A stretch of DNA of 64,000 bases, taken from contig BEXV01000119.1 in NCBI GenBank assembly GCA_003118195.1, positions 250,400 to 314,399 on the forward strand. The letters run 5' to 3'. This DNA comes from Hemicentrotus pulcherrimus (Eukaryota > Echinodermata > Echinoidea > Camarodonta > Strongylocentrotidae). Below are positions 353 to 52,851 of the stretch, in pieces. The position numbers and the translations under genes were made by a program. Numbering within the stretch: the stretch's first letter is position 1; each line of letters opens with the position of its first letter. Under the pieces are notes generated by a model. That model made no database searches, was not told the DNA's origin, and saw only the letters and a program-made list of their open reading frames with translations.

Positions 353-524
353 GTGTTGCGTTTTGTTGAAATATCCCTGCAATCACGTAAGGTCAACCTG
401 CTGTCAACGGACTATGAGCATGGGGCCACTCAAGTGCATCAGGTTCCGATAGACACAAGGATAAACCAGATCACTATCTCTGTCAGTGGTGATAGTAGGA
501 ACGTCACTTTTAGAGACCCTAGTG
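353..524 (+). CDS. HMCN1: Hemicentin exon, post-vWA region part 1
   Basis: The exon opens in frame with [10 protein letters not shown] after acceptor CTGCAG and ends at donor GTAAGG in phase 1. It encodes the start of the conserved segment between the vWA domain and the first Ig. The stretch [19 protein letters not shown] resembles the 'fluctuating beta-sandwich then DPSG' block of vertebrate hemicentins. It belongs to the secreted N-terminal region that is shared by hemicentins and not by other Ig-repeat proteins. Confidence 0.88.
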
Positions 525-18463: not shown

Positions 18464-18507
<44 letters not shown>

Positions 18508-19963: not shown

Positions 19964-20007
<44 letters not shown>

Positions 20008-20343
20008 NCGTCTCAGAGTTCACAGTAAGTCTTATTGGGGAATTGGGTGATTATTGTAGTGCTGGTGGTGTAAAAGTGGTGCTGATGCTTTTGTTTATGC
20101 GGATGAGGATGATGATGAGGATGAGGAGGAGGAGGATGATGATAATGATGGTGATGATAATGGTTGTGTTGATGGTTATGGATGTGATGGTTATGATGAT
20201 GATGATGGTGATGATGGTGGTGATGGTGGTGATGATAACGATGATGATAATGGTCGTGCTGATGGTGATGGTTGTGATGGTTATGATGATGATGATGATG
20301 ATGATGATGGTAATAATGATGGTGTTGTTGATGATGGTGGTGG

Positions 20344-20387
<44 letters not shown>

Positions 20388-23300
20388 ATGAAGGTGACGG
20401 TGGTAATGATGGTCAAAATGTTGATGACAGTTATCATGCCGGATGATGGCTCTTGTGTGGTGGAGGGGGTGGTTGCAATGGTTGGGGGATAGTCAGGATA
20501 ATAATGATTAAGTTAATAGGTAAGATAATGATAGGGATAGTGGTAGTCATGACAAAGATAATGATGTTGATGATGATAATGATGATGATTGTGATAAATG
20601 ACAATGCTAGTAATTTCTGTTCAGTTCTCACTAATAACTCTTATTGATCTTCATCTTAAAGTGATACAAACTCTATCTTCCCTTTAGATCCACCCAGTAT
20701 ATCAGGCACAGAGACCAGCTACACAGTAATCCATCACGAGTCGGTCACTTTGCTATGTCCGGCAGCAGGACACCCACCACCACTCATTGAGTGGATCAAG
20801 AACGGACAGACGGTACCCAACCTAGGACTGCATCAGAGTGCCCTTACACTAAACTATGTCACCGAACAGGACGCAGGGACGTACATCTGTAGGGTTTCTA
20901 ACGTAGCTGGATTCTCGGAGATCGAAATAACGCTCTTTATTCTTGGTGAGTGAGAGAATATTATTATCTTATTTTCTTTTATTGTGCCAAAAGTAGTAAT
21001 ATTTGTTGGTTGATTATTGGTGATCTGTACAGTGTATTTATTTATCTATTTACTTATGCATTCATTTATATGGTATTATTTCAACAGGGTAGCCCTGTAA
21101 GTAGTTACAAAAATACTGGTGTACAAGGGTCTCTAATGTAAACAATACAGGAGACATAAATGTTTATAATTATCTACATGGTGAAATTTTACAAAATTAG
21201 CTTACATGTACCTTGGGTTTTCTGTATTTCAACTTGCCTGTTTGTTTCAAAATGGTCCAACTGAAATAACAATAATCATAGTTATGATAAAGACTTCTAT
21301 TAATACGCCTAAGTTCTTTTTATATATTACAGAAAGTAGAAAGGTGTATCAATACTAATTGCCTGCACACAAAATACACCTGAGTGGTCAGCATATAAAC
21401 TTATAATGGTATCATTTTCTCTTTTCAGTGCCACCTGCCCATGAGGGTGTCGAGACCACCGGGGTCGTCAACGTGACCCAGGGGGATAGTGTCACCCTGC
21501 CATGCAATGTAAGGGGGAATCCCCCTCCTCAGATCTCCTGGTTCAAAGACAACCTTCCCCTCCCGGAAGCAGGAAGGAACTTCTATGTGAATACGGACGG
21601 CGGCTTGGTCATCCAGCAGATGTCGGTGGCTGAGGAAGGGCAGTATAGGTGTGTGGCCTCTAACATAGCAGGCAATGTCTCAAAGGATGTCCGCATTACT
21701 ATTCTTGGTGGGTGGTCTACTAATAATGTTATGTTTGCTTCTATCTCTGTCAGTCAATCTGGTCTTCCATTAAGCTATCACTTTATACTATCAAGCACTC
21801 CATTTTAAAATGATTCTATTTATCCTTTGAAAAACCTTAATCAGGTTACTTAATGGAAATTTGTAATTTCTTTTTTTTTCCACTTGTCATGCCTCAATCA
21901 GTCCATTAATATTTTTCTTTATTATTAGTTTACTCCAAAGGCCGTCAGTCTTTCTGTCTACTCATGCCTTACCGCATGCAATAACACTTTTCAAACAGTC
22001 AGTAGCAATGCAGCCCAAGATTTTCAAATATGTAAAATATATGTTTGGACTAAGAATAGAAATTTGTTTCCTTTTCAATCTCAAACTGGATATGCAGTTT
22101 GATTTATAAGTGTATGTTTCTAGGTAAGATATTTCATGCTAAATTTTTACCTTTAAATATGAAATTCAAAATCAAAAGGCGACTCTGAAACTTGAACTTT
22201 GTGGCATATATAGGAGGTTAAGTCTGTGTTTATATGGAGATGTAATGCATGTTCATATAGTCATTCAATCTGCATCTCGTGTTCCATTGGAACAGTTCCA
22301 CCAAGCATCCAACCTGGAAACACAGAGTATGCCGTGGTAGCTGGAGGTTCTGTCGTCTTGTCTTGTGAAGCCTATGGCATTCCCATGCCGGATGTGGTAT
22401 GGCAGAAAGATGGAGCTCAGCTGTCCCTAGCTACCAGGAATGTCCGCATCCTGGAGGAAGGCTCGCTCCAGATAGATGTCACTTCGGAGGACCATACAGG
22501 AACGTATACTTGCCTGGTAACCAACGAGGCTGGATCTACCAACAGGTTTATCACTCTTAGTGTGATTGGTAAGTTTCCATAGAGAGAGTGAGAGAAAGAA
22601 AGAGGGAGAGAATGAGGGAAAGGGAGAGAGAAAGAGAGTGAGAGAGAGAAAAGATAAAGAGAGAGAANNNNNNNNNNNNNNNNNNNNNNNNNNNNNNNNN
22701 NNNNNNNNNNNNNNNNNNNNNNNNNNNNNNNNNNNNNNNNNNNNNNNNNNNNNNNNNNNNNNNNNNNNNNNNNNNNNNNNNNNNNNNNNNNNNNNNNNNN
22801 NNNNNNNNNNNNNNNNNNNNNNNNNNNNNNNNNNNNNNNNNNNNNNNNNNNNNNNNNNNNNNNNNNNNNNNNNNNNNNNNNNNNNNNNNNNNNNNNNNNN
22901 NNNNNNNNNNNNNNNNNNNNNNNNNNNNNNNNNNNNNNNNNNNNNNNNNNNNNNNNNNNNNNNNNNNNNNNNNNNNNNNNNNNNNNNNNNNNNNNNNNNN
23001 NNNNNNNNNNNNNNNNNNNNNNNNNNNNNNNNNNNNNNNNNNNNNNNNNNNNNNNNNNNNNNNNNNNNNNNNNNNNNNNNNNNNNNNNNNNNNNNNNNNN
23101 NNNNNNNNNNNNNNNNNNNNNNNNNNNNNNNNNNNNNNNNNNNNNNNNNNNNNNNNNNNNNNNNNNNNNNNNNNNNNNNNNNNNNNNNNNNNNNNNNNNN
23201 NNNNNNNNNNNNNNNNNNNNNNNNNNNNNNNNNNNNNNNNNNNNNNNNNNNNNNNNNNNNNNNNNNNNNNNNNNNNNNNNNNNNNNNNNNNNNNNNNNNN

Positions 23301-26300
23301 NNNNNNNNNNNNNNNNNNNNNNNNNNNNNNNNNNNNNNNNNNNNNNNNNNNNNNNNNNNNNNNNNNNNNNNNNNNNNNNNNNNNNNNNNNNNNNNNNNNN
23401 NNNNNNNNNNNNNNNNNNNNNNNNNNNNNNNNNNNNNNNNNNNNNNNNNNNNNNNNNNNNNNNNNNNNNNNNNNNNNNNNNNNNNNNNNNNNNNNAAAAA
23501 AAAAAAAAAAAAAAACAGAGGATGTAGCAGTAGTTACAATTGTCTTGATACTTTAGGGTTTTAGCCATAAATTTAAACAAGTATTTGTAAACATGCAACT
23601 GTGCCCCAACCTTCTTTTTTTTCCAAAGAAAAATTTATTCAATCATTCTCGAGCATGAACAAAACAATGCATTTGAACAAGATACTTGTTATGACATATC
23701 TTACATAGGTGATTGATAAGAGTTGATGGCATGTTACATTTGATATCAATCACTTTTCTTACATAAGAAATAGGCTACAGAACTTTTTGATAATGACTAA
23801 CTTGTTATCGATTTGTATCAATTATTCTCTTTAAAGGAAAAGGGCCCTTGTCATTAGCGACATCATTTTTGATTGCTGTGCAAGATTTCTGCCCATTAAT
23901 GATTGGAAATTTCTGTTGTGTTTCTGGCACAATGCTCTCTCCTTTAATATACAGCAGTGATAAATGATGATGTAATTCACCGGAATCATGTTTGTTTTCA
24001 CTCAATTTGAGTTTGTCAATATAACCTAGTAAACCACACACCAGAGATGCGGTTGAAGTGGTGTGGTGAAGTGAAGGTTTATGTATTCTCTCAGCAAAGT
24101 TTGGGATCATTTACAGTAAAATCATTATGAAAATAATCTAGACTTTATGAATACTGAATGCTATTAACTTCAATCTTTCTTAAATGTTCTAATTCAGTTG
24201 CACCGACTATTGGGCAGGTTGTCAATGAGACCATATAAAATGTTTTAAACTTAAATCTTTCTTTAATGTTAAACTTCAGTTGCTCCAGTTATTGAGGAGG
24301 CTGTTGAGGAGACCTTTAGCATCACTATAGGCGAGACCGTCTCCCTGCCATGTGAGGTGACAGGCACTCCTCCACCGATAGTCACCTGGTACAAGTCAGG
24401 CAACCCGATCTCGGTCACTAATTCAATGGTCATCACCCAAGACTCACTGGACATCTATAATACTAGACCATTTGATACTGGCATCTATCAGTGTGTGGCA
24501 AGCAACGTTGCAGGCAACGTCACCAGGAACTTCAGGCTCATTGTCATGAGTAAGTAGAAATCTTGGATTATTTGTCTATTTCATATTTCAGCATTGAACT
24601 CATAACATACAGAGCAAAATAGTGTTTTTTTTTTGGTGTGATTGGTATGCTTTAAGTTAGAGTTTCCACATATTTCAAGATTTGCTTTTTAGTAACCAAT
24701 TTGTATCACCTTTCATATATTTGAATGCATGCATGCAGTTGTATCTATATGTAGCAATAGATTAGATCTTTGGCCTCTGTTTTTAGGTTTATGTTTTACA
24801 TTTTACATGTACATAAAAAAGATACATAATCTCTGATCTCTGAGAAGTGTCTAACTTTTGATTTTAAGTGGCCCAAACATTGTGGAGCGCGTGCAGCACT
24901 TTGTAACTGCAAGACGAAAAGACGCTATATCAAATATCTTTTGGATTGGATTGTATCATTTCAAAATGATTTAGGTTGGAGTGTCGAGTTTCAGTTATTT
25001 TAAGTATGCACTTCTTGTTGAATTACGATAAGATTTCAAACAAGATGTGAAACTTCTTATCTCTTGAAACGCATCTTTATCCTTGTTCACCTAGTTCCTC
25101 CAAGCATTCAAGATGGCCCAGCGACCCGTACGACTGAGGTCGGAGCTCATATCGAGTTAGAATGCAGGGCTGATGGTATCCCACTGCCTGAAATAACCTG
25201 GTATAAGGATGGAGAGCCTCTTGGCACATACAATGACCCAAGGTTTGTCTAGTAAAGCATCATGAATTTCTTTCCATTTTAAAACTCCTCTCCACATCAT
25301 ATCACTTAAAGATGTTTTTACTGAGTTGCTGCAAAGTTTTTATTTGTACCAGCTATCCGCCATCCTTAAGACAGCTGTAGGTATAGACTATTGATAAAAA
25401 CACCTAAAGTAACAATTTTATATTTCTAAAAAAAAATTGAATTTAGATGGTAATGAAAGTGTTACGTCTGTTTTTACATTAATTTTTGCTCTATTACCAA
25501 GGACACATGTGATCAAATAGTTTACAACATGTAGAGAGTGATGATAAACTTCTGTAAAACTATAATAGACTCATTGAACCTGAAATTCACAGAATGTTCA
25601 ACCTGTTCAGAGGAGTAAAAAGAAATCTGAGTAAATTTTCCCTTTATTGATCAAATGAAATTCTATCAACTTTGAAATGCATGTCCCAAATAGTAAAATG
25701 TGTCTGATTCCTTTTGAATACTGAAGTGTGTTTCAGGCCTAATGATTTTGCTGAAATTTTTCTTAGATAACCAGGGTGAATGTCATGTCTGTCATGCTAT
25801 AATTGATGGTATGAAACTGTTAAATGGTTTTGCCATTGACTTTTAAATCTTCAGGTTTCGAAAGACCGCCTTTGGTACTCTTCAGATATTGAAAGTAGAT
25901 CAGGAAGATTCTGGAGAGTATGCCTGCTATGTCTCCAACGACGCAGGCAAAGCTTCCAAGTTTGTTACTCTCACCGTCAACTGTAAGTCTTTGCTATTTG
26001 AGAATTCAAACTTCCATTATTATAGACAAGGGTGATTCACTTCTGGGAAAGGTGAACAAAATAATTTGTGAACTTGTTTCATTCTATTTATGTAAGTGTG
26101 GGAATGTATCAGAAAAACGTCTCTTGAAAGGGATGGTTCTTCAAGTTCCCCCATACTCAAAATATGACAAGTAACAGCTAAATTTTGAAGACTGCACTTT
26201 AATTCCTAATGTTTGTGTAGTTCCACATATACACACTTTTGTGTATAGTGCACATGACTTTTAGCAAGACTGGGTAAAATTCTTATCATTTTGATGACTC

Positions 26301-29300
26301 CAAAACTTCACAGTATACACCAATACTTATGTGCTTCATGAAACTTTTTTCAATCGCTTTCACACAGTATATTTAAGGATGCAATATTGCATGACCAGAA
26401 CTTAATTTTATCTTTAATGAAACCAAGTATATTTGCAGATAACTACCGGTACACAAAGTCAGAGTTTACAACACTACTACTTCTTCACCTGAAATGTTAC
26501 ATTGTTGAATGAATTAGTGGGAAAAATTAGTCTGGCTAAGGCACTTCAAAGCAGGTACAAAATGAAAGAGATCTGTACTTGGAAGATATTGGCTTTTATG
26601 CAAGATTGAAGAACATTTCATGTAGAAGGAGCATGTCTTACACAATGTATGTACATTTAGATGACTGTTATTATGTTATATCATCATAAATGTGTAATTT
26701 TGGATAGTAAAATAAGACAATTATCTCTTCAAAATAAAAGATTCTGAAAATGCTAATAAATCACATGTTTCTGGAACTGCACGTCTCATCAAAATTCCTA
26801 ACCTGAGGAGTTAGAATGAGAATAAGTATGACACCAAGATTTAAGTGAGAGGATGATAATTCTCAGAGTAGAAATTTCAATCACAAGACAATTTTCAAAG
26901 AAATGGTAAAACATACTCAAGGTTGATCATGCAGAAAGCAATGACTTATGCCATATAACTCATTGTATGCTATGTTTTTTGTTTTTAACAGTGGCACCTA
27001 TTTTGCTAGATAGTCCTGATTCCTAAACCAGCCTGATACGTAACCCTGTGACCCTTCAGTGTCTAGCTGCTGGCTTCCCTCCCCCTGATGTGACCTGGCT
27101 CAAGAATGGAGCTCCACTGAACCAAGATGATGTCAGGTAGGTTACAGGTCCATATTGGGACTCCTTTGAGACCATGTTAACAAGGTCTAGTCTTAGCTGG
27201 CTATGTTGAATGAATTGAGATCTTCGTTTTGAGCCACTTCTATGATAAAGAGAGCTTATATGTCACATTTTTTACTTTTGTGTTGACTAAAGATGAACTT
27301 GCATCACTTTGTGTAAGATCTTAAACCAATATTTCTTGACTGACTATAGGGTGTGTGTGTGTTTCCGTAAGTTTTAATAGTATGTTGTTCTATAAACCCA
27401 TATATACAGTTAAAAACTGAATTATTCATACCCTGACAAAGTTCTGCAATTTTTAAGTATGTAAACAAAATTTATTTGTCCCAATTTATTTTTTGTGAAC
27501 ACAAAAAAGTATTTGGAAAAGGCCCTAATTCAACCAGTCTACAATTCATTCTTGAGTTAAAAAAAACATATCCATTGAGAAATGTATATAAATGTCTGAG
27601 AGTAGGCCTACATGTATTTATTTACATATTTGTAAAGTATCAACATCAATCATTTCCTCTCCCCTCCTATCCCTTCCTATCCAGGTACTACATAACTCCC
27701 AGCAACTCACTTCTCATAGCTTCCACCATGAGGGAAGATAGTGGCATCTATACCTGTAACGTAACTAATACCGCTGGATACCAATACAAGCACATGGAGC
27801 TAACAGTTTACCGTAAGGATTCTAAATGCTTGCAGAATTTTATAACAATAAGTCATCAACAGTATAAGAAAACACAGGAAATTCTCCTTGAATTTCCTTA
27901 CCAATACCACTTGTTGTGGAACTTTTCCCTTCCTTTCAATTTGCTCGTTTCTGTATGTATGGACTGTTCAAACAATAGTCTGAGTTATAATTAGTATAAA
28001 TTATTAATGTAGATCGATGCATAAGGAAATGAGAGACTTTTGTTGGTATCATTTTAATGATGAATAATAATATTATTAATATCTATAATATTACGATTTA
28101 TATCCGTGTTTGCATAAAAATATATCATTGTACATTTGTTACTGTGTATTATCTATTTGTGTATATCATTTTCTACTGTATATTGTTCATGTGCCTATGT
28201 AATGCCAACAACTGAATTTCCGAATGGACCAATAAAATTAATCTGAATCTGAATCTGAATCTGAANGTTAAGTCTCAAATATGATACAATGGATCCTGTT
28301 TAGCCAGGGATGTGGCTGTACTTGTCGCACATTTCTTAGGCAACTCAAGATGTCTATTAAATCAATGTAAATCTTTTCAACGATTGATTGCTTGTATTTA
28401 TTATTGTTATTATTATTATCATTTGTTTGTTTTATGTTTGGCTTTCCCTGGTTCGCTTTCATGAATCTGTGGGAAAGCCAAATGGTCATAGGAAATCCAT
28501 AACTTGTGGAAGTGCAGCACAGAAAGCTGAATCATTTGTTCTTTATTATGTTTCTATCGTATGATATTTCTGGAATGTTGAATAAATAATAATAATGATA
28601 ATAAATTCATTTATGTTGTTCAACTTTTCTTATGTTGACAGTACCTCCAACATCCATCAACAGTGGAGATACCAGCTACGATGTTACCCTTAACAATCCT
28701 GTCTCGCTACCATGCGAGGTGCAAAGTTACCCCCCTCCTACCATTACATGGCTCAAGGATGGACGGGTGATCCCTTATACCAACTCCCATTACCGCATCC
28801 AGCCATCTTCTCTTGATATCCCCATGGCTGTGGTGAGGGACTCCGGGGTCTACACCTGCATTGCTACTAACATCGTCGGCAACATTTCTAGGAATTATCA
28901 AATCAACGTTCAAGGTTAGTCTCTGAATGATAGTAAATGTTGGTTTTCTATTTTTACTTTCATTTGGTTGTTTACTATCTTGGAGAGTTTGTGATTTGAG
29001 GAAGAGCAAATAAGGATCTATTTAGTATCATGGTGTCATGCTGTAATTCAATGTCAAGTCATTACTGATTTGAGAATGGAAATAAGGTGTGGAAGTCATG
29101 ATTAAGAGTTATTAATGTTGATGTTCTTGTCATAATTTAAATCTTAATGATAAAGTGAGTAATTATCTATTTTCCAATTCTTCTGTCTCTACTTCTGCAT
29201 CTTTTCCAAAGTTATCTTATCCCTGAACAGTCCAAATCTCATCCTTGGTTACCTTGTTGCTATCTATTCTTGACATAGTTTTATGCTAAATGATAAAGTG

Positions 29301-32300
29301 AATAATCATTTTGTTTCACCGCATCTCTCTATCTGTTTTCTGCATCTTTTCTAAGTTGTCATATACCTCAACAGTCCAAGTCACATCGCTGGTAACCTTG
29401 TTGCCTTCTATACCTGTTGTATGTTTCAGTTCCCCCATACATCAGTCCTGGTCCTGACACCATCACTGCCTACCTGGGCCAGAACGTGACCCTTCCATGA
29501 GACTCTATCGGTGTTCCCACCCCAATGACCATGTGGGATAAGGGTGGACTGCAGCTCAACTACGACAACTCTCGATTCCACAAGCTGGATGAAGGTTCTC
29601 TGATCATCAGTGATGTGCGGGAGTTGGATGCTGGTGTTTATTACTGTCTCGTGGTCAACCAAGCGGGCTCTGATACCAAGAGGATCACTCTTACTGTAAA
29701 GGGTATGTCTCCATACTCTCGGGGGGAGTGTTTCACAAAGACTAAGATTAACTTTAAGTTGGACTTAACTATGGCAGGCCATCCATGCCACTGGTTGCTC
29801 TCACCATTGGTCTCGCAAACAGTGGCATATATAGCTTGCCATAGTTAAGTTCAACTAAAAGTCGACCTTAGTCTTTGTGAGACACTCCCCTGATCTCTTG
29901 TGACAATTATCAATTGATTCACCAGTCAATTACCCTAAGAAAGTAGTAATGGAAGTTGTGATTTCAAGCTATTGGTGTTAAAGTTCTTGTCATGATATTA
30001 AGCTAAATAATGATGATGCTCCTTGCATTATCAACGAGCAACCTGAAGTACTCATAGAAAAGAAAAGGTGCATTAGACATAAAAGGTTCATAGTTTGGGA
30101 TGTGAAAGAAAAGTTATTTCCGTAGGTCAAATAATTATTTTACATCACCAGTTTAGTTGTTTATTAATTTTATCAGATCAGACTATAACATTTTGCGATT
30201 CTTGTCATTCTTTATCATGATAGATGCTCCTCGCATCATCAATGAGCTTCCTGAGGTGATGGAACAGATAATGAACACAGAGGTACGGATACCATGCCAA
30301 GCCACAGGGACACCTAGACCTCAGATCAGTTGGTTCAAGGATGGACGTCCCATAGAACAACTCAGAGGCTACACGGTGCTTGGAGACAATACCATGCTGA
30401 TATCTAGTCTGCAACCCTATGATAATGGCCGATACGAGTGAAGAGCACAGAGTGAGAGTGGGTTCGATTCTATCGATGTCTTCATCGATACACAGGGTAA
30501 GTTTTCTTGGAACATTTGTTTGAATAGTGAGCCCTTATATTGCTGGTGAGAACATAGCCAATGATCCTGTGATGATATTTACTGCAGACAGTCGTTTTAG
30601 AATGCAATGTCACCGACTACCATCCTCCTGCCGAGGTTACATTATGAAAGTTTTGAGAATATTTTTAATAGTTGATGAAGCATGGAGGTTGGATATGTGT
30701 CATACTAAATCTTATCAATATATGAATGGTTTAATCCCAGAAGGAGCTAAATCCACTTTTGATGAAAATTAAGTCATTGATATCAGAACATTGTTCATTT
30801 AAGTACCCGTCATTCAACAAAAGTACTTACCTAAATTTTAGGAGCAATTATGAAAAAAATTTACCTTGTAATATCACCTTTCCATAGACACCTGTGCAAA
30901 ATCTGGTAAAAAAACTTTTTTCTCTGAAGTTACAAAAATGGATTTAGCTCCTTTTGGAATTAAACTCTTGATATTTCTCTTGTTTGTGTAGTGCGCCCTC
31001 ACATTGCTGGTGAGAACACACCGGACGATCCTGTGGTTGTCTTCACTGAAGAGGATCAGACGGTCATCTTAGAATGCAACGTCACTGACTCTCACCCTCC
31101 TGCCGAGGTCACATGGTACCAGAACGGTCAGGCCATACTGGCCAGGGCAGACATCGGGATTCACTTTGAGACGGGTGATACCAGTCTCAGGTTACCATAC
31201 CTAAGGCCAGAGGATGCTGGTCACTACCATTGTGAGGCAACCAATGGACAGGGGTCCAGTCAGCGCCACTTCTCCTTGGAAGTCCACGGTGAGTAATGAT
31301 TAACACTTTGGTTACTTTCTTGGCCTCTCTCCGAGTTCACTCGTTAGCCACACATGCAATTTTGCACAAAATGATAGGTACCAATTGACTGAAAAATTGC
31401 TTTGTGCAACACAGTGACTTCGCAAAATTACCCATTTGTGGTCTTGATCAGCTTCATGACAATCTTTTTAACACTGTTTAGATCAATCTTGCACTGTAAA
31501 CAGTTCAATAATCTTTAAGCCTTTGGTATATCCATCCCATGATAAGTATAATTGGCATATAAAGAGATGAGGATGTTTTCTATACATTTAGTTGTTGGGA
31601 TTTAGTGGTTTAGGTTTGTGGAGTGGTTTAGTCACTTGACTAAAAATGTGGGGGTCCTTGGATTAAGTCCTAGCATGGCATTTACATGTATATCTTTCAG
31701 GCATTTTATCTACATTGCTTTGATTGACTAGGATGTATCGATAAGTAACCAGTAGGATGCAAAGGACACTAAGGCATGAATCTGTGTGTGGCAAGGTGAA
31801 TCTTGATTGATAGAATGCCCCTGAAGGAAAGTGAGCTCTTAAATGTGATTGAATCCAAAAGAGAATGTAATCATACTATTTAAATACTTTGATCAGCTGC
31901 TGGTAGGAGAGAGATGTATGATTTAAAAAGAAATATTACTTTTTATATCTTGATTTATAACACAAACTGAATTACAAATTACATGAATATGATATTAGGC
32001 TGTTAGTGCTCCCAGATGCTTATAATGATCTCAACTTGTTCCACCAAACACAGTCGGCCCGGTGATAAGGAACCGACGACAGGAACAGGTCACGGTGCAG
32101 GTTGGTCACAGCGTCACCATCCACTGTGAAGCTAGTGGGGTACCCGACGCCAGGATTCTTTGGATGTTTGGAGATATCGCCATCTCCAGTCAGAACAGCC
32201 GTTATCACATCGCTAGCAATGGCTCCTTGCAACTCAGAGAGGTACAGGTCATTGACTCGGGCATGTTCACTTGTATCGCAAAGAACTCAGCTGGAAACGA

Positions 32301-35300
32301 CACCAGAGTGGTCAATATAAATGTGATTGGTGAGTATGATGTTGGTATGCTTACAATCTTTCAGTGATTTCAGGTGTGTTAACATGGACTTCGGCCTTTT
32401 TTTAATCCCCCTTATGTATTTTACTGTAATTTCAAGTATATACCTGCGTTTATTAATTCCATGTTTTTGTCCTCACCGTAATAATTTAATGTCTTTTTTC
32501 ATAACCTTTTATGTACATATTTGACCCATTTAGAAATTTTCCCTTTCCATTCTATTTGTCTCCTCAGTGCCCCCATCTATCAATGATGGCACGTCTGACA
32601 TTGTCCGCACACTCTCCAGCTCAGTCATCCTCCCTTGCGAGTCGGCAGGAGTACCTTTCCCTGAGATCACTTGGTACAAGAACGGCGCACCTCTGAACCT
32701 CTCCAACCCCAACCTGGAGAAGCTCTTCTCAGGCTCCCTGAGGATCCGTAGCGTGGAGGAGCAGGATGCCGGAGAGTATCGGTGTGTGGCCGTCAACCAG
32801 GCTGGCCATGATTAAAAGATGCTCACGCTTTGGATACACAGTAAGTTTCGCTTTCCATTTATGAAACCATGAAACAGGGATCATAGTTGAATGTGACTGA
32901 GAAATGAAAAAAGCTAGAAATGTTTTTTTGAGTTCCGATTAATTTTTTCATCCTTTCATACTTCATAGTCTGAAAGGTTTTGTTTTGTTTTTGCAATTGT
33001 CTTTCTCTATGATAGTCAACTTTGAGTTAGTACAATGCCATAGAAAAATATTGTTTGTGAACAAAACAATTTTTTTCTTCAAAAGGAAGTCAAGTCAATG
33101 CTCTTTATAATGCTTTGACTATATTTTATTTCTTTTTTCAATTGCATGTAGATTTAAAATCTTGGGTTTGACAATTTTATTTCCAGTTCTGCATATTTTC
33201 TCCATAAAAAACGATGTTGTATATATAGAGAACAGTGCATTCCAAAGCTGATGATGTTGTCACTTACAGTTTGTTTCAATGTTATTTATATATATATTGC
33301 CTGCTTAGAGCCAGAGGGGCATTATCATATGTGCTCATATTGTATCATCTCTTTCTTTCTCTCTCTCTTTCCCACACTCTTTCTATCTCTCTTTCCTACA
33401 CTCTTTCTCTCTCTCTTTCCCACACTCTTTCTCTCTCTCTTTCCCACACTCTTTCTCTCTCTCTTTTCCACACTCTCTGTGTTCTGCAGCCCCGCCTTCT
33501 CTGCAGCCGGATGCATCCAGGAACGTGTCAACCGGGGTGGACGAGAAGGTCATTATCCCCTGCAACATCAGCGGTAGCCCCAAGCCGCAGTATCGCTGGC
33601 TAAAGAACAACCGCGAGCTGCTGATGAACTACGGCAAGATGGAGCTGCTAGAGGACGGTTCCTTGATGATCAGGGACGTGCAGTCGATGGATAGGGGCTC
33701 CTACACCTGTGAGGCTACTAATGCTGTCGGGGTGCTCAGCAGGGAGGTTAGGCTTGAAGTGTCAGGTAACTTTAACACTTCTGCTGCTTTCTTTGCCTCC
33801 CTACACCGTTGCTTGTTTGCCGCATGTGCCATTTTTATGCCTATGCTACAAAGTAGTCGGAGGCATTATGTTTTCTGGTTGTCCGTCCGTCCGTCCGTAC
33901 GTCCCGTTCTCGTGATCGCGTTATCTCAAGAACCAGTCGATGGATTCCTGCCAAACTTGGGTCATGTATTTATCTATCAGAGCTTATGAACTGATTAGAT
34001 TTTGGGGTCACAAGGTCAAAGGTCAAAGGTCGCAGGGCTCATTACGTATACAAAAATAGCTTGTGATCGCATTATCTCAAGAACCAGTCGATGGATTCCT
34101 GCCAAACTTGGGTCATGTATTTATCTATCAGAGCTTATGAACTGATTAGATTTTGGGGTCACAAGGTCAAAGGTCAAAGGTCGCAGGGCTCATTACGTAT
34201 ACAAAAATAGCTTGTGATCGCATTATCTCAAGAACCAGTCGATGGATTCCTGCCAAACTTGGGTCATGTATTTATCTATCAGAGCTTATGAACTGATAAG
34301 ATTGTGACAAATAGCTTGTGATCACATTATCATGAGAACCAATAGACAGATTACTATCAAACTCAGGACATGTATATATATATCCTGAAGAGCCAATTAA
34401 CTGATTAGAGTTAAGGGTCATCAGGTCAAAGGTCATGGGGCTCATTATGTATGACTATAAATAGCTTGTGAATGCATTATCATTAAAACCGACATGGATT
34501 ACAATCAAACTTGAATTCTAAAAATAGCTTCCGTTTTGGTATTAAAATTGCTCTTTAGCGGAGACATCATTTTTGAATGCAAGCAGTCTAAATTCCATCT
34601 AGTTCACAATACAATGGGCACCGATCGACAGACACTAAGAACATGACAGACAAAGAAAGCGGACAAAATATACAGTTCCTCAGGTAGACAAAGGAACATC
34701 CCTTCACTGCTATTGTGTAAAAAGTGAATATGCAAGTGCACCTGTTCTACACATATTTACATGAAAGCAGTAGTGAAGGGATGTTCCTGTGTTAACCTGA
34801 GGAACTGTATATTTTGTCCTCTTTCTTTGTCAGTCATGTTCATAGTGACAATGGCTTTGCAAATTTACCAATATCTGGTTTGATTAGTGCCATGGCAAGC
34901 CTTATCCAGCATTGTAAACAGTTAAATAATCTTGAAGCCTTTGGTATATCTTTCCCATGATTGATACACTGTAGTACAGAGAGATTATTTGTATGGCAAA
35001 AAAGAGTTCATACTCTTAGGTCTCTCTCTTTCTGTAGATACTTGGATATAGCTAATGTATATGTGTCTCTCTGTCCCCTTTTTCCTTTTTAGTTTCCATT
35101 TATATCCCTCACTCTCTCTCTTCTCGTCACTCCATCTCTTATTCTAGCAAAATAATACAATATAACCAATACCCTACTAAACTTGAGTTACAATCACTGA
35201 TCTTGCGATCTGTTCAACTTACCGAATTCTTAATTTAAGAGAGTATATTTCTTATCCGCTTGTTCTTTGAACTGTCTTGAAGACCGGTATGTCGCACTGG

Positions 35301-38300
35301 TTTTGTCCTCTCCTTCCTGTATCGTAATGCTGTTGAACTTGAATACTCTTTGTCCCAAACAGATCACATTGTGGCAATTTGATGGTGCCTGTTTAAAGTA
35401 CGTTGTGATTTTCAACGCCAAATAACTCAATTTTATGTTTATGAAATGCTTCAATGCGAGAGGTAGAGAGATGATGATGATCAATCTTTTCTATCTATCT
35501 ATCTAAGTATCATCTCCCAGTTGATTGCAACATTTCACTCTTTCATCTTCTGCCATTCCGGTGCACTCTTGCAGTTTTAGTCCACTCCAGTTCTTGACAT
35601 TCTCTCCCAGTTGATTCTGTGTCTCCCTTTTGGTCTAGTTCCTCCCACTCTTACCTCAATCTTCAATCTTTTATCACTTTATATTGTTCTTATATAGTTG
35701 CTCCAAAGATTCCAGGTTCCAAGACGCCTGTAGAGTACCCAGTAGGGCAGTATGATTCCATCGAGCTTCAGTGCATGGTAACGGATGCCTTCCCACCACC
35801 CATCATCAAGTGGTATAAAGGAGATGAGACGTTGACTGGCCAGGAGGAGGCGGTCACTATCAAAGACCAGGGCATCACCCTGGAGATTGGGTCTGTTAAC
35901 ATAGCCAATGCTGGGGAGTACTACTGCACAGCAACCAATGATGCTGGTATGGCATCTATGAACTGGACAATCGACGTACAGGGTAAGAACATCTTGAATA
36001 TTGACTATGTGGAGACTCTTTGTAACTTGAGCCCTGAGTTTTATAAATAACCCTGGTGCAAAAGTATATTATTGTAATCTGATCTATATTAATGTAAAGC
36101 TATATAATGTAATTATCTGTTTATTTATTTACAGTAAAGGTTTCTAGAATTGTCTTCATTATTATATAGTGCTTTGAAACACTTGTGCAAAATCTCCACT
36201 CCCTGGGGAGCATTCCATCCAGGAGTTACTTGACGCTCACAAACTGTTTGACCAACGATGAAGGTGGCATCCTACCAGGTACCCATTTAACACCTGGGTG
36301 GAGAGTAGCAAGTGTAGGTTAATATCTTGCCAAAGGATATTAGTGCCATGTTGGGAGTCAAACCCTAGACTGGAGAGTCAAGCACCTTAAACTATGACAC
36401 TCCTGATCAGACACACTATTATATCATTATTTTTACAGTTACACCCAGCATCTTGAATGGACAGGACGAGTACCTGACCACGGTCCAGAACGTTGACATC
36501 ACCCTCCTGTGTGAGGCCGAGGGTAACCCAGCGCCCACCATTACATGGGAGAGAGACAACAAACCCTTGGAGCTTAGAGACAGTCACTACCTCATAGGAG
36601 AAGACGGTTCCTTGAGGATCACCGCTCCGCAGCACACCGATAGCGGGGGCTAAGTTTGTGTGGCGTCCAACAACATTGGATATGCTATCAAGAACTTCCA
36701 TCTTGTTGTAAAGAGTGAGTATGTAGGATTTTCAAGCCTATCTGCACTAGTTTGGCCAGGAGGGATTAGACCTCCCTGCATGGTTAATGGCAAGTGGTTA
36801 TCTCATCAAATCAGCTCTCAATTAACATAAGAAAAAGGGGACCATGGGGGATGAATGGGTACCGCTTAGGCATTGTTGGCTGTATAGAGGGCGCAAGTAG
36901 CTACAAGTAGTGCAGTCCCGCTTAAAAAGAAGAAATGTTGAAGAAAACTTAATGGAATAAATACTTGGTGATTTAACATATTTTGTTACCCATGTTGAAA
37001 CATACAGAGCAAAATACTGCCCACCTCGGCCAGTTGTTGTTGTTCTTAGGTTTTAAGGCTGACCAATCTAAAAAGATTATTTCATGGTCTGATAACCACA
37101 GTGTGTGCATTTTATATTGGTTCGTCAAACCCAATTCTTGCATTTCAGGTTATACTACCAATGTGCATGCACAGGCATTTTTCACTTACTGCTAATGGTT
37201 GGCTATGTATATGATGTCTACATGTAGGCCAATAAGATGCAAAATTACCATGAATGAGAATAAGAGGACAGTATTATTCACTTTGATCCATGTCAACTCC
37301 TTCCTTTATCTTTTCTAAATCCCATAAATAGGCTTGTTTCAAATCCTCTCAGTCCGTGTCCCCATGTCTATGGAACAAACTTTCTACATTTCTAAGAAAT
37401 ATTACTTCATTTAACTTCTTCTAAAACCATTTGAAAACATACCTCTACAATTCTTGTTAATTTGTTGATAGACTACAAAGGGACAACTTTTTGTATCCTC
37501 TGGAAAAGGTGCTATATAGATCCAATCATAATTATTTGTGTTGGTATTGTTATTATTATTATGTTGTGCACTTTTTGTATTTCCTTGCTATCCTAGTTCC
37601 TCCTAAGACGAGCACGCAACAAGAGGTAGTGACCATAGGTTTACGTCAGTCGGTGACCCTACGATGTCAAGCTGCAGGATTCCCAGCACCAACCATCAGC
37701 TGGAGAAAGAACAACCTACCAATCCCTCTCAGTACCCGAGCCTTTAGCATCAGCAGCAATGGAGGCAGCCTGACCATCAACAGCACACGAGAGGGCGACA
37801 GTGGCATCTATTCCTGTATCGCTTCCAACGAGGTGGGCGAACAGTCCTTGGACATCCTGCTGAAGGTGCAGGAACCACCCATCATCCTAGGAGAACTTGA
37901 GGTCAATCGTATGCAACATGTCCAGCTGGTAGAAGGTGATGACATCGAGCTGCCCTGCCCAACCACCGGTTACCCTAAACCAAGAGTGGCCTGGTTCAGA
38001 GACAACCGGATTCTGTCTCCTCCAGAGTATAAGATAAAGGATGATGGAACATTGGTCATTCCAGGAGCCATGCCGTTTGATGCTGGTGTGTATACTTGCA
38101 GCGCAGTGAATGAAGCTGGAAACTCAAGTATATCCATTAATGTCACAGTAATGGGTAAGTCTGCTTTCATACCATCTATGCCAATAGTAAAAGCTCTCAG
38201 TATAAACTGATGTAAAACAAATGCACTCCACTAGCGACTTTGAACAGAAAGGTGAAGGAAGTTGGAAGGAAAAGTGAAACGATAGTGGTGAAAATGTTTG

Positions 38301-41300
38301 ATCGTGACAAGACTTTTAATCAACCATCAGGATACCTCCTTATAACATGTTTATTTTTCAGTGTACATGAAATATAGGAACACAAAATTTGTTTCTTTCA
38401 AATTTTGATTTGCCTTTGTGTTTTGTCCTTTTCAGATCAGAGATTGACTGATCTTTGACAGATGTCATATATACATGTATGTTACTTCTTGATGCCAAAG
38501 CAATTATTCTTGATCTTTGAAATCTCTTTGTATTTGATTCCATCAATTCTTGATTTTCAGTTCCCCCACTCATCGTGGATGCTTACAGACCTGTGGACAT
38601 CATAGTCATTCTAAACAATCCTGCAAGGTTGTACTGTGAGATTGACATCTCTATCCCCATGGCAACCATCGTCTGGCAGAAGGATGGCATCTCTCTTCGG
38701 GAGGATTCAAACATCCGCATCTCTCGGGACGGTCAGATCCTTGAGATTAATCAGGTACAGGTCAACAACGAGGGTCGGTATACCTGTATAGCAACAAACA
38801 ATGCAGGAAACGCCACCAAGTTCTTTGGTCTTACAGTCCATGGTAAGTATGACCCAGACTTCTGAAACAATCTTGCTTTCATATACTTGTGGACATTGTG
38901 GTACAATCCTGCCAGCTTTGTTGAGAATACAATAATGAAATATAACTAAAGTAACTAAGAGTCTGGGTACCACAAGGGAGTGTACTTGCCCCTGTCCTAT
39001 TTCTTGAACACATTTGAAGGCAGACTGATCCTCTTAAAAAAAAAATGATATGATAAAAAAAAAAATGATATAGCCTAATAGTCCTCTCCAAATTTTATTA
39101 AACCAAAACGGAAAATTCTTTTTGCCCAACTGATCGTGAGCCCGGCAGCCACTGTTCAGCGCCAGATCGACGTTGCTCTATCCCTTATTGTTGAACGCCA
39201 AACAAGGTAGCAACAACTCGCATCTTTTAACGTCTTTTGGTATGACGCGGCTGGGGTTTGAACCCACGACCTCCCGGTTGTGAGGCGGACGCTCTACTGA
39301 CTGAGCCAACACTCCACTCTTTGTAGCAAAACAGGATTTTTAGATAATTCGTACAGTATAGAAGAAAAGTATGATTAGCACCATTAAGCGTTTTCAGAAA
39401 GATGCAGATAACCATAATATCATAATCCCAAATATTGTTATGAAAGTTGTTATCATATGAAAACCTAAAAACTTAAAATGCAAGTCATTCATGCTTTCTT
39501 TCTTTGCCCAGTTCCTCCTATTTTCCCTGATGGTAACCCTGTGAACCCCATGATGATGAGCATCAATGAAGATGACTCTACCCAGCTTAGTTGCCATGCC
39601 AGCGGGTACCCTCCACCCACCATTAGATGGTACAAAGATGGCCGCCTGGTAACCCACAATGAGCCGGGCGTGGCGGTGTCCAATGCCGGAGAAGTTCTAA
39701 GGATTAACAGGGTGAATAGAATACATGCTGGGCAGTTCACCTGTGTCGCAAGCAGCATCGTAGGGAACATCTCCAAGAGTTATGTGCTCAATGTTAGAGG
39801 TGGGTTGTAAGAATTTAGAGAATGGTGGATTATTATTGAAGAAATAGTGTTGATTGTGCAGTCTCTGTAGTTGTTGATATTTGTATAGTCATTTTCGTCA
39901 ATGCTCATGAGAGTTTGATTTCCTATTCTGCAGCCTCAAATGAAAGAAGTATAGAATGGTTGCCAACATTTTCTTTTAACTACCACTTTAAATTTTACCT
40001 ACCCTGAATACAATTAACAGTCTTTGCCTGGTTTATAAGTAACATAGAAAATGTTCTATCCTAGCAAAAAAATGGAACAAAATACTTGTATCACTGACCT
40101 CATTTATTCACTGTACTATAAAAATGATGACCAATATACCTTGGAAAGACACGTTGAAGCAAATTAAAGTGTGTACACAAATCCTTTCTTCCCCCCAAAA
40201 CAGGGACATTTGTAAGAAAACATGATAATATGATTTCATTAATTTGAGCTTAGTAATACAGATGAACAATAGTTAGTATAAGGTGATACAGATTTGTGTT
40301 GATTATTTAGAGGAGCAATAAATAATAAAGCCTTCGATGGATCTTTCCAATTCTTATAGTGAGGCCTGAGATTGAAGGAGCAGAGTTCCCTCACAATGTA
40401 TCTGTTGTTAACAACATGGGTATTGAGCTGCGCTGTCCAACCGTAGCTATCCCCGTCCCGGAGATTGTTTGGTACAAGGACGGTCACCGACTTCACCCCT
40501 TCCAGAGCGGAGTCCTCATCTCTCCCGATGGCACCACTCTGAGAATACCCAATGCTCAGCTCCACGATGAGGGCGTCTATCAATGTGTTGCGACCAATGT
40601 GGCGGGAGAAGAGATGAAGCTGTTCAATTTACAGATTGATGGTTTGTACTTCTGTGATTTATTCTTATTATTTGTTAGAGATTGGGCTATGTGATGGGGT
40701 TAATGTTTTTAGAGATGTCATGGTCTAATGGATAAGTCACTGAGCTATGAATAATAACAATGATGCAGTAGAGGAGAATGCTTAATCGCAAGCTTTTTTT
40801 GTTGTTGAGTGGTTAACAAAGGCCACTGACAATTAGTATAAAGTTATACTTTTCATCTTTTGTCTCTTTTTTTTCTCGTACCTACAGTTCCACCTGTCAT
40901 AGTATCTAGGGAGCCTAATCAGATTGCCGTCATAGCTGGTGGCTCAACTACTATTGACTGCGAGAGCTATGGTGTCCCCAAACCAACAGTGACATGGACA
41001 AAGAATAATGCCTTTATATCACCAGCTAGCATAAGGTGAGGTGTCTGGATGTTTTCATGGTCACTATCTTTTTGCGCAATTCTTTTTTTGTTTGTCCTTT
41101 CACCTCCTAACTCTTTATTTAGTCCAGTTACTTTTGCAAATTATTCTTATCTCTTAGTGAATTAAGAAGAGCAATGTATATGGAACTTTGAAAATTAACC
41201 AATATTATGTTCACATTTATATAGCATCAGGTTTGATAAATGAATGTACAATTTTAGCATACATGGTCCGGTGAATTTTGTAGATTACTGTAACTCTTAT

Positions 41301-44300
41301 CAGGATTAGGTTTAAGAATCTAATCTATCCTGATTCAAATCAAAGATATGTGGTAGGAAATTTGACTGGTTTAAATTGACAATAGCAGATCCATGAACCT
41401 GCTGTGAAGTTTTACTAAGATGAATTAAATTGAATTGATATTGACTGCATGTAACATGGCTAGAAGTTAGAAGGCATTCTTAAGGTCAAGATCGGAAAGG
41501 GCCTGTGGCATCAAAGAGGCTGCAGCTGTCACATAATGAAGATGAACATGGCCAGACAAAGCAGTCTTTGAATGCCTTTAAAGAACTTTGAGTGAAATTA
41601 TTTAAAATTTAATTTCAAATTATTATTGATCAGATTGAATTTAATTGAGTTGATTTTGACTATAAATTGTAGCAAAGCTTTGGTGATAGTGGTGGTGATG
41701 GTGGCGGCAAACGATGCAGGCTTTTAATACTTTGAATTGACTCAGTGAAATTATTTTAATTTGATTTGAATTAATATTGATCAGATACGACATAGACCCA
41801 GCTGGATTGCTCCATATAGCTACAGTGACAGTAGCAGATGAAGGTGTCTTTGAATGTTTCGTCTCCAACTCTGCTGGCAATGTGACAAGAAGAATAGATC
41901 TACAGGTTCAAGGTAAGATTCCATTGGTTTACTGAGAATCAAAACAGTTTTAACCCATGACAGTCTAGTATCAATGTTTAGAGATTTATCAAAAATTCTT
42001 ATCTTTTGATCCAGTATGCTCTGAATTGCAAATCATACATGAGCAGAAAAGAGTACACCAATTGTTAGAAGACTTGAGGCCATTTCTGTTGCACGACATT
42101 GTTTTGTTCATGAATAAGAGTGATTGAATTAAAAATAATCATTAAAGTATCTAAATTTAAAAGTTTGATTGTCAAGCTGTTTTTATTTTCTTCTTTGATA
42201 TGTTAGTTCAACCAACCATCACACCAGGGCGTGGTAGGGTGACTACCCGAATAGGTCAGTCAGTGCGCCTCTTCTGCGATGCCACCGGTGTCCCTACCCC
42301 AGAGATCCTGTGGCAGAAGGATGGTCAGAGGGTTTATCCCATGGAAGGATTCCTGATCATCAGTGATGGTATGTTGCAGATCAATGATGCACAGCCCTCA
42401 GATGCAGGGCGATAAGACTGCATTGCTAAGAATGGAGCCGGAGCGGATGTCTTCAAGGTCATTCTTGAGGTTCATGGTGAGTTTCCTGGGTACCACATAT
42501 AGTTGATGTTAAGATTAAAGTCTCTTAACCCATTGTCTTCCTGATTGTTTTCTTCCGTTCGGCATGTACAAGAATCACCTTTTTTTCTGTAGGCATTGGG
42601 ATAATAAAGTTCTATGATTGGAAAGAATTAAACTAAAATTTAGGCCATGTGGGTGCAAGGTTGCTCTAACTTCATGTTGAGTGTTATGATACCAGATTAT
42701 TGATTAAGGGGTAAAAGTCTTTCTATCCACCCTAGGTGGGGTTGTTTAACCCTAATAAGGCCGAGGAGGGGGGGGGGGCACTATGGCCCCCACCCTATGT
42801 GATTTTTCTGATTGTTCGGGAATGCATACAGATGCGCCCCGCCGCTCACAGACTTTTCTCTCTCTCGCTCGAGTCTTGCACATATTTTAAGACATTTTTT
42901 TTTAATCGGACGTACAGTTACAAATGTCAGGCAGAAAAGTGCTTGTTTTTGTGATTTGTTTACAAAACATATGGAAATGTCATTTTCCTAAAAAGAGATA
43001 AGAACATTGGTTATTTGGTCTTGTTTAAACTTTAGAGTTTGTGTTGGGGGTTAAAATAGTTGAATTGTCATTTATTTGCATAAGTTACCATAAATGTGCA
43101 AATGAATGAATTTTTCAAAAAATTGAATTTACCATAGTCGCGGCGATCGGCCGTTTCACGCCAGAGATCATAGAAAGATCTGAAATACCCCGGCCTCATT
43201 AGGGTTAAGTGATCATATTGGAAGAACTGCATACTTGACCACAACGATCCACAGAAGGATGCATGACCATTTTCTTGTTTATTATCGCAATCACTTTTAA
43301 GAAGCAAGTACTACATTTACCTGTTCAAATATAATGTAACTGATGCATATGTATTAATGAGATGGAACCAATTTTTTTCATTTTTTCCCTTCATAGAGCC
43401 ACCTCAGATCGCAGAGACCACTCAAACATATGAGATCAGAGTAGATGCTTCTGTTGAGTTGGAATGCCGTGTCAGTGGGATTCCCAAGCCAAACATTCGC
43501 TGGCTATTCAATGGACAAGAACTGGGAGCCCAGAGTCTGAAGCTTGCTAATGGAAACCTCAAGATACCTGTTGTGAGGGCAGAGGATAGTGGGGCTTACA
43601 CTTGTCTGGCTCAGAATGATGCTGGATTCGCCCAAGCAGAGAGGATTCTTGTAGTGCTAGGTAAGTAGCCATGGCTTATAAACGATGGCTCAAAATGATG
43701 TTGGGTTCGCCCAAGCAGAGAGGATTCTTGTAGTGCTAGGTAAGTAGTCAAGGCTTAGAAATGATGGCAGAATGAGTGTGGGGTTCGTCTGCCAGACTGC
43801 TGTTTCTTCTCTCATTCTGAACATATTCTGTTCTAATCCTAAATATCTTCTGGTTTTCCCTCTTATAGATGTTCCAAGGCTTCCAAGACCACCTCGTGAG
43901 CAGTCCGAGATGACCATTAGTGTGAATCGACGAGCAGTGTTGACCTGTCCAGCTGATGGCTATCCACCCCCTGAGGTCACTTGGAGGAAGGATGGAATCC
44001 TCGTTGAACCTGCCGGTAGAATCACAATGACTGAGAACCATGAACTCATCATTGACAGAGTACAGGTAAAGCAAGGTCATCCATCGAATGATAATGATAA
44101 TGATGATGATGATAATAAAATTATGGGTTTATATAGCGTTTGATACATCAACAAATCAACAATGTCTCTATGCACACACAATATGTGCACATACTCCACT
44201 CCCTGTGGAGCATTCCGGCCAGGCCTCATTATACATAAATTAACAGTACAGAGCAAACTACAATGACCAGGTCCCCATTTAACTCATGGGTGAAGAGAAG

Positions 44301-47300
44301 CCACATAGAAAAAATGCAGAACCAATGACCTCTTTCAGCACCTCTTCCTCATGAAAATTAATCATTGAAATTACAACAAAAAAACATCATTTGAGATGTT
44401 GGTGATAGGGATAGGCATTTGAATGGATGATCATATAACAGTTTGAAGATCATATTCAAAAACATGCTTAATCTTTGTTTTGAAAGAAGAATGATATTTT
44501 TAGACTGGTTTTCAACTTTTCCTTCTTTTCTTAATGTTTCTCCTCTCCATTTTTGTTTTACTTCATGTTATATTCTGTTTTCTTATTTTTGCTGCCCAAG
44601 CAATCTTATCATATTAACTATATATATTTCAATACTGAAAAATCAATTGTAACTGTATTTCATGTTTGAAATAGGCAATGAGTCTTTTAATTTCACACAT
44701 GACCAATTCAGCCATTGGGCTGTGACACATTAAAAAACAACAACCTTGAATTGAATTGAATTGAATTAATGTAGTAATAAACAATGTATATTAATTGAAA
44801 ATTAATTTGATATGATGTTATCTGCAATTACTTCAAAGTGCAAAGAAAGTTGTGCACAAATTTATGAATATCTTTGTAATTGGATTATTATTAGCAAAAA
44901 TAACTTAAGTATGCCATTAATTTATTTTGTTGTTGACAATCATAAAAAAATACAATTGACACAGATCGTGGATGTAGATTGATGTAGATGTGTTGTGTTC
45001 TGTTTTGTTTCACCAGGAAAGTGATAGTGGTACCTATACATGCGTGGCTACAAATTCTATTGGCAGTAACAGACTAAATTTCTACCTCACAGTACAAGGT
45101 ATGCCATGGGTTCAATTATTGCATTTCTAAAGTTCTGTAGCTTTGGTTTAAGATATGCATTTAAGACATCAGTAAATGAAGATGAAATTTCAGCAAGGTA
45201 GCTGGTAAAATCGGTAAAATCATTAAAAAAATGAGAAGGGACAGAGGGAATGCATTTTGAAATAGGACTCTTCACAAGTTAGTTTGCTATTTTTGTATCC
45301 TGATTTGTAAACATTTTTGTTTAAAAAAATAATAGAACATCAGTTCGAAACATTCACATTCGTAGTCAAAAGACTACATCTTAATAAGCATTACAATAAC
45401 ATTAATATTAGTCATGTACAAAAATATAAATACATTTTACTAGCTTCAATGATCATTAAATATTTTGATTTCATATGAGAAGAAGGAGCAAGAAATTAAT
45501 GGGATTTGATATTTGATATTGAATATATGCTATACAGATAAATCAAAGTACAAAGCCATCGAAACAGAAACTTATAAACATTCTCTTTGCACATATTTAA
45601 GAAATACCAATTATTGATTGAAAATTTTGATAGTCTGACCATGTGTTTTAATTGTGTTCATTTTCAGTTGCTCCAACATTCACCCACTTCCCAAATGATG
45701 TAGAGCTAGCAGCTGGTAACAGACTGGAATTGATTTGTGAAGCTATTGGTGTGCCTATGCCTGATATTACATGGCTGGTCAATGGGACTGAGATGATTCC
45801 AAGTAAGGAACATGATTACCCTGATATTATTCAATATATTCAATACTAGTAATTGTAGGATTCCAGAATGAACAGCATACTGTACACTTTGCTAAATGCT
45901 TACTCATGGAGACTGTTGTCGGAGCAAATAGGCAAGGAAGACCAAGGAAGAGATGGAAAAGTGACATTCTAATAAGGAGCACCTTCCAGAAGTCATATAG
46001 AATCGCTTAAGACAGGAATACATGGTTTGAATATGTTTGTGGAGCCAACTTCTTTAGGGACACAGTGACAGCTTAGGTTAAATTAGTTTAGCTTAGCTTG
46101 GCTTAATTGTAGTAGGTTCTTGTGTGGTGCTTTTATGTGGCACACTTGCCACTCCTGATGCTTCAATATTTTTACCCTAGCTTTAGCATGACAGCCATTA
46201 CAGCGCTCAATCATTTGAAGGAACTGATTCCGACCGAAATACAATTTACATGTACCTCACCTTAGATGAGTGTGTAGCAAATTTTAGATTGGTGTCTTGC
46301 AAAGGAGATAAGTTCTGCAACATTTTCACTTTTCACTTTGTTTTTCAACTTATAATTGCTTTTATTAATTGAAAGGATAATTATCCTACCTTTTTCTGTA
46401 TCACTATCATTTACACCTGTACATACATACATCTTTTCATCATGTAGACCCACCTACTTTTGATGGTCGTAGTGTGCTTGCCATTGGGAATGTACAGAAG
46501 AGTGACAGTGGAACGTACATGTGCCGAGCTGAAAATATTCTTGGTGTGAGGACAGCCATCACTGCTGTACGCGTTAGGGGTGAGTTACTACATTTGAGTC
46601 AGTTTTAATATGTTAATTGCACATGTATATTGCACATTTATGAGTGTAGTTCAACCAATGTTTGTTATTGTGTATGGTGTGTTTACATTCTGAGCATAGA
46701 AGCAGATCCAGAGATTTTTTTTGTTGGTAGCGTGTATTTACATCCCATCGCTGCCATCCCTAGAATAAGGAGCTGATTGGAATTCAATTTGAGAGATTTT
46801 TATCTTTATTTTCCCTTTCAAAAGAGATGTGTTTATAAACCTACATCGGACACCTGCAAAAAAGGAGTCAAAATCCAAATGATTTTCCAGTTTATATTGT
46901 CAATATAACAATTAGAGTATTTATCACTAAAGGGCATTTAGCAAGGACTTTTATCTGTAGTGTTAACATTGAACATTGAGTAAAGGCTGTAAAGTAATAA
47001 GTTTTAAATGTCTTAATTCTGGACAAACGTTTTCTGTATTTATTAAATTTTTTGTTTGTTCCCCCTTTCTCAATTCTCTATGTATCTCATACTTATTCTA
47101 TCCCTCTGCGCCTCAGAATAGTTTACTAGATCGATGGCGCATAATAAATGCTGTATTATTATTAGTATTATTCTTTGAACACCATTATAGCAACTTGAGT
47201 GGGTAGTGAAATTATATAAACACTCATGTTCCCTTACCAAGTAGGGCCAGATGAAAATTCTAAGTTATCATTATGAACTACTGTACAATCTTTTTGCAGT

Positions 47301-52816: not shown

Positions 52817-52851
<35 letters not shown>

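What the first reader, a model, noticed from the sequence alone, without database searches (positions are those of the whole stretch)
27024..42415. Cluster of six in-frame stops in otherwise intact Ig exons
Ig 12, 14, 15, 18, 21 and 28 each contain one in-frame stop; the other 53 exons contain none. Four stops replace an invariant Cys or the Y-x-C Tyr, and all six can arise from one substitution to A (for example TAC to TAA, TGC to TGA). Splice sites, phases and flanking motifs are intact, which argues against an old pseudogene. Explanations are consensus error, a nonsense haplotype, or tolerance through skipping of symmetrical exons. Translational recoding is the least supported.
Basis: partly seen in the sequence, partly recalled or inferred. 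Interest (0 to 1): 0.8.

Follow-up and report, generated by a model that had tools for sequence, protein, structure and literature searches.

The report
Six stray stops in urchin hemicentin
An ordinary giant sea-urchin matrix-protein gene (hemicentin) carries six single-letter stop codons that its closest relatives lack, most likely wrong letters in this sequence record and not a new way of reading genes.

Summary
The window carries a hemicentin gene of a Lytechinus-like sea urchin on the + strand. My model of Ig3-Ig33 (37 exons, 2844 codons) stays in frame and holds exactly six stops: 27024 TAA, 29498 TGA, 30439 TGA, 32813 TAA, 36651 TAA, 42413 TAA. A 98%-identical protein, P0121 (source masked by the tool, probably the same species), reads Tyr or Cys at all six; so does Diadema setosum, and L. 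pictus except His at 32813. Three more database proteins read Tyr at 42413. So all six stops, not four, sit on Tyr (TAA) or Cys (TGA) codons.

The window shows no missense excess (20 window-only against 38 P0121-only) and no frameshift, which speaks against a decaying pseudogene. Stop contexts are poor for readthrough, downstream folding is ordinary, and one stop exon is not symmetrical.

Best reading: wrong letters private to this record. No reads or second DNA copy could be examined. Errors blind to the reading frame should also have left more missense changes, so an altered record, a real null allele or, remotely, recoding are not excluded.

The parts
353..63999 (+). hemicentin gene, partial: upstream exons, tandem Ig domains, six TSP1, G2F and EGF exons; it begins before and runs past the window
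   Evidence: P0121 98%, Lytechinus pictus hemicentin-1-like 86%, Diadema setosum hemicentin-1-like 69% over the searched region
8114..48942 (+). Ig3-Ig33 as modelled: 37 exons, 2844 codons in frame, six stops
   Evidence: aligned
27024..27026 (+). TAA in exon Ig12a (26992-27136, 145 nt); Tyr in P0121, L. pictus and Diadema
29498..29500 (+). TGA in exon Ig14 (29430-29702); first invariant Ig Cys in the three relatives
30439..30441 (+). TGA in exon Ig15 (30224-30496); second invariant Ig Cys in the three relatives
32813..32815 (+). TAA in exon Ig18 (32568-32840); Tyr in P0121 and Diadema, His in L. pictus
36651..36653 (+). TAA in exon Ig21 (36439-36714); Y-x-C Tyr in the three relatives
42413..42415 (+). 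TAA in exon Ig28 (42207-42476); Y-x-C Tyr in the three relatives and in P0241, P0242, P0243
22668..23495 (.). run of N where P0121 has one more Ig exon (92 aa) between Ig9 and Ig10

Best explanation
The gene is an ordinary, constrained sea-urchin hemicentin. The six stops are single-letter differences private to this sequence record among the sequences I could compare, and most likely are wrong letters in the record (a consensus or assembly error, or a later change of the letters), so the animal's gene is probably intact and read in the normal way. Shown: six stops, sense residues at the same sites in relatives, no missense excess, no frameshift in the model. Inferred: that the animal's DNA has sense codons there; no reads and no second DNA copy of this locus could be examined. 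An error process blind to the reading frame fits only if the six stops are a lucky draw picked out by the scan; letters changed with the frame in view (for example a test edit) would fit without luck, but I have no direct evidence for that.
For: P0121 (98% identical, 4653 aa, on one 35.9-Mb contig, flagged by the tool as encoded by the window) has Tyr/Cys at 6 of 6 sites, Diadema at 6 of 6, L. pictus at 5 of 6 with His at the sixth. P0241 (source lgn, 4 member sequences, 2 contigs), P0242 and P0243 (source ena) read Tyr at 42413. Of 2800 codons aligned to P0121 and L. pictus, 20 are window-only missense and 38 P0121-only, so the window allele shows normal constraint. At sites conserved in all three relatives the window differs at 2 of 61 Cys and 3 of 71 Tyr, all stops and no missense; Trp 33 of 33, Gln 57 of 57, Lys 39 of 39 and Gly 170 of 170 are kept. 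No frameshift in the 37-exon model.
Against: A frame-blind error process should leave many missense changes beside six stops: 128 expected with equal rates against 33 seen, 73 against 6 for C-to-A only; asked the other way, P(at least 6 stops among the observed changes) is 7e-3 (equal rates), 1e-4 (C-to-A) or 1.5e-2 (C/T-to-A at codon position 3). Window-only missense changes are not significantly biased towards A (10 of 20 against 10 of 29 unambiguous P0121-only changes, P 0.38), so no independent sign of a to-A error is seen. No reads were examined.
Confidence: 0.7

Rival explanations
1. Real nonsense allele: the sequenced animal carries a null hemicentin haplotype, or several nonsense variants merged into one consensus, and the stops trigger truncation and mRNA decay.
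For: The stops are in an otherwise normal allele that differs from P0121 by 71 missense changes, so the window is a distinct haplotype (77 differences in 2844 codons, 6 of them stops). C-to-A changes alone would put all six stops on Tyr/Cys codons with probability 0.12.
Against: After the first stop the haplotype should gather missense changes and frameshifts; 20 window-only missense against 38 P0121-only and no frameshift. Missense in stop exons is not raised (5 of 503 against 15 of 2297, P 0.38).
Confidence: 0.18
2. Tolerance by exon skipping: stop exons are skipped and the repeat protein loses whole Ig domains in frame.
For: Five of six stop exons are multiples of three and start and end in phase 1.
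Against: Ig12a is 145 nt, so skipping it alone shifts the frame; the stop exons keep normal missense constraint; P0121 and L. pictus proteins include these regions.
Confidence: 0.03
3. Diverged duplicate: the window is a pseudogene copy of hemicentin.
For: Two partial exon duplications exist in introns (30528-30642, 75.6% identical to the start of Ig16; 43686-43739, 94.4% identical to the end of Ig29).
Against: 2844 codons in frame, intact splice sites, full TSP1/G2F/EGF tail, no missense excess. Whether the assembly holds a second copy could not be asked: the genome search was unreachable.
Confidence: 0.03
4. Recoding: UAA is read as Tyr and UGA as Cys, so the six changes would be silent.
For: It alone predicts stops only at Tyr (TAA) and Cys (TGA) codons with no missense change. 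Natural readthrough is reported to insert Gln, Tyr or Lys at UAA/UAG and Trp, Arg or Cys at UGA (PMC7764779, passages).
Against: Relatives have sense residues there. All six stops are followed by a purine, two of them in UAAA, which the review calls the most accurate termination signal, pyrimidines favouring readthrough (from yeast). No unusual structure in 80 nt downstream (z from -0.15 to 0.89). No TAG among the four Tyr sites (chance 0.06). The one tRNA-like hit reads as a CAC anticodon, not a stop-reading one (my reading).
Confidence: 0.02

Closest known systems
Hemicentin-1-like of Lytechinus pictus (P0122) and the masked Lytechinus-like P0121
   Same: Same domain order over the searched part, 86% and 98% identity
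   Different: No stops; Tyr/Cys at the six sites except His in L. pictus at 32813; one more Ig exon where the window has an N gap
Vertebrate hemicentin-1/fibulin-6
   Same: Long Ig tandem array followed by TSP1, G2F and EGF (recalled); about 31-34% identity to the searched part
   Different: Longer Ig array (about 5500-5650 aa proteins listed)
Stop-codon readthrough at near-cognate codons
   Same: Tyr at UAA and Cys at UGA are among the residues reported to be inserted (PMC7764779, passages)
   Different: Poor contexts, no structure, and sense codons in relatives
Variant nuclear codes of ciliates and other protists (for example UGA = Cys, recalled from the NCBI tables)
   Same: Formally the same reading of the codons
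   Different: Known from protists in the listings seen (abstracts only); nothing suggests it in a sea urchin

Membership tests
Hemicentin | long tandem array of I-set Ig domains | tested here: met
   Ig3-Ig33 modelled, Ig1-Ig2 seen
Hemicentin | TSP1 repeats, G2F and calcium-binding EGF domains after the Ig array | tested here: met
   six TSP1 exons, a G2F-region exon and EGF exons; P0121 carries PF00090, PF07474 and PF07645 (family names recalled)
Hemicentin | N-terminal VWA-like domain | not tested
   would lie upstream of the window's first matched exon (P0121 residue 246)
Pseudogene | frameshifts and splice-site decay | tested here: not met
   37 exons in frame with AG/GT ends
Pseudogene | relaxed missense constraint | tested here: not met
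   20 window-only against 38 P0121-only missense
Programmed readthrough | leaky 3' context or downstream structure | tested here: not met
   purine at +4 at six of six stops, z-scores near 0
Selenoprotein | SECIS element | tested here: inconclusive
   no SECIS among Rfam gathering matches, but the 3' end of the gene is outside the window; four of six stops are TAA anyway
Variant genetic code (TAA = Tyr, TGA = Cys) | stop codons at the same sites or at other Tyr/Cys sites in relatives | tested here: not met
   relatives are recorded with sense residues; only protein sequences could be compared, and the other genes of the assembly were not tested (genome search did not complete)
Assembly or consensus error | raw reads disagree with the consensus | not testable with these tools
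   no reads available

The most novel reading that the evidence does not exclude
This animal or its population reads UAA as Tyr and UGA as Cys by relaxed third-base discrimination, so that TAC/TAT-to-TAA and TGC/TGT-to-TGA changes are silent; it would explain why stops occur only at Tyr and Cys codons and without missense change.
Probability: 0.02. Interest if true: 0.95.

Novelty: not a real feature. Interest (0 to 1): 0.15.

Why it matters
If the letters are wrong, the practical lesson is that this record would make gene finders break or truncate a large, constrained matrix gene, and that stop codons in a single assembly should be checked against a second one before any claim of recoding. 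If the stops were real in the animal, a gene under normal constraint with six stops would demand suppression or recoding in a sea urchin, which would be very surprising.

Tried and rejected
Tried without result: the genome search for the window's own assembly, the same request seven times, never answered; paper reading for an L. variegatus genome paper by DOI, not held; ARAGORN found no tRNA; paper searches listed no paper whose title or abstract start reports stops in a sea-urchin hemicentin (listings only; 15, 9, 10, 8, 12 and 8 papers shown). One search failed by an error of my script and was mended.

First homology search: I cut the query short (2394 aa), which limited candidates by length, and it gave only about 26-33% identical hemicentins; with 3519 aa found the close relatives. 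Both scored a capped set of candidates and listed 120 of 958 and 120 of 1055. I aligned 3 of these 240 proteins (those of 69% identity or more).

First difference table used tblastn pieces, counted codons at exon edges and missed exon Ig12a (5 stops); I dropped 21 edge or intron rows and replaced the table by the spliced alignment (2800 of 2844 codons aligned to both relatives).

Rejected: old pseudogene, exon-skipping tolerance, selenocysteine (cannot explain TAA), a suppressor tRNA in the intron at 39243-39315 (anticodon reads CAC), a general to-A error (P 0.38). Viral, prokaryote and phage collections were not searched, since they should not hold sea-urchin DNA.

Full report
What the locus is. 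The + strand carries one gene from about 353 to the end of the window: upstream exons, 33 recognisable Ig domains, six TSP1 exons, a G2F region and EGF exons. The best named database relatives are hemicentin-1-like proteins of Lytechinus pictus (86%) and Diadema setosum (69%); the closest protein, P0121 (98%), has its source masked because the tool counts it as encoded by the window. The organism is therefore a Lytechinus-like sea urchin; L. variegatus is my inference. P0121 is not the same haplotype: it differs at 77 of 2844 codons, six of them the stops, and at 38 sites the window agrees with L. pictus against P0121.

The observation. Joining the 37 exons of Ig3-Ig33 gives 2844 codons in one frame with exactly six stops, TAA at 27024, 32813, 36651 and 42413 and TGA at 29498 and 30439. 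Nineteen further matched stretches outside that span carry no stop. The total of 59 exons was not reproduced. One Ig exon (92 aa in P0121) is missing at the N gap 22668-23495.

What the relatives say. At the six sites P0121 and Diadema have Y, C, C, Y, Y, Y and L. pictus Y, C, C, H, Y, Y. Three shorter database proteins of 76-96% identity (P0241, P0242, P0243) all read Tyr at 42413; that search scored four candidates and three passed. The stops are thus private to the window among the six proteins I compared, three of which cover one site only. All comparisons are with protein records; no DNA of a relative was available, and annotation pipelines translate with the standard code.

Pattern. Among sites where all three relatives agree, the window keeps 59 of 61 Cys and 68 of 71 Tyr, the five exceptions being stops; Trp 33 of 33, Gln 57 of 57, Lys 39 of 39 and Gly 170 of 170 are kept, while Glu loses 2 of 82, Arg 2 of 77, Leu 1 of 142 and Ser 1 of 110 to missense. 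Under equal substitution rates only 18% of nonsense paths run through Tyr or Cys to TAA or TGA, so six of six has probability 3.3e-5; under C-to-A alone it is 0.12. Yet C-to-A alone should bring some 73 missense changes with six stops, and 6 compatible ones are seen. The milder question, how often six or more stops would occur among the observed number of changes, gives 7e-3 (equal rates), 5e-3 (transitions favoured), 8e-4 (any to A), 1e-4 (C-to-A) and 1.5e-2 (C/T-to-A at third positions). The finding was selected for its stops, so these numbers overstate the surprise. Window-only missense is not biased towards A (10 of 20 against 10 of 29, P 0.38).

Reading. Decay of a null allele or pseudogene should raise missense and indel counts; it did not (20 window-only against 38 P0121-only missense, no frameshift; 5 of 503 codons in stop exons against 15 of 2297 elsewhere, P 0.38). 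Exon skipping meets a 145-nt exon. Readthrough meets six purines at +4, two of them UAAA, and no unusual downstream structure (context rules from passages of PMC7764779). What remains is that the letters of this record are wrong at six places. A frame-blind error process is strained by the missing missense changes, so either the scan picked a lucky draw or the letters were changed with the frame in view; I cannot tell these apart, and neither can be shown without reads. A true null allele keeps a real share of probability. Recoding of UAA as Tyr and UGA as Cys would predict the pattern exactly but has the evidence of relatives and context against it.

Verdict. Interest is low, with a small chance of something very surprising that read mapping would settle.

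Noticed in passing
window 30528-30642: Intron copy of the first 123 nt of exon Ig16, 75.6% identical: a decayed partial exon duplication.
   Followed up: partly
window 43607-43787: 79-bp tandem repeat that duplicates the end of exon Ig29 and its donor into the intron; 54 nt at 43686-43739 are 94.4% identical to the exon end.
   Followed up: partly
window 39243-39315, - strand: tRNA-like sequence inside an intron (Rfam tRNA, 36.6 bits; not called by ARAGORN), anticodon reads CAC by my reading, with several mismatched pairs; perhaps a tRNA-derived short repeat.
   Followed up: partly
window 33912-34303: 151-bp tandem repeat, 2.6 copies, 99% identical, in the intron after Ig19.
   Followed up: no
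window 19537-20391: Long degenerate ATG/GAT trinucleotide repeat between Ig6 and Ig7.
   Followed up: no
window 4029-4064 and 4116-4153: Two short arrays of the same 17-bp unit.
   Followed up: no
window 32762-32774: Three neighbouring codons of Ig18 differ among the window, P0121 and L. pictus, a small variable patch upstream of the stop at 32813.
   Followed up: no
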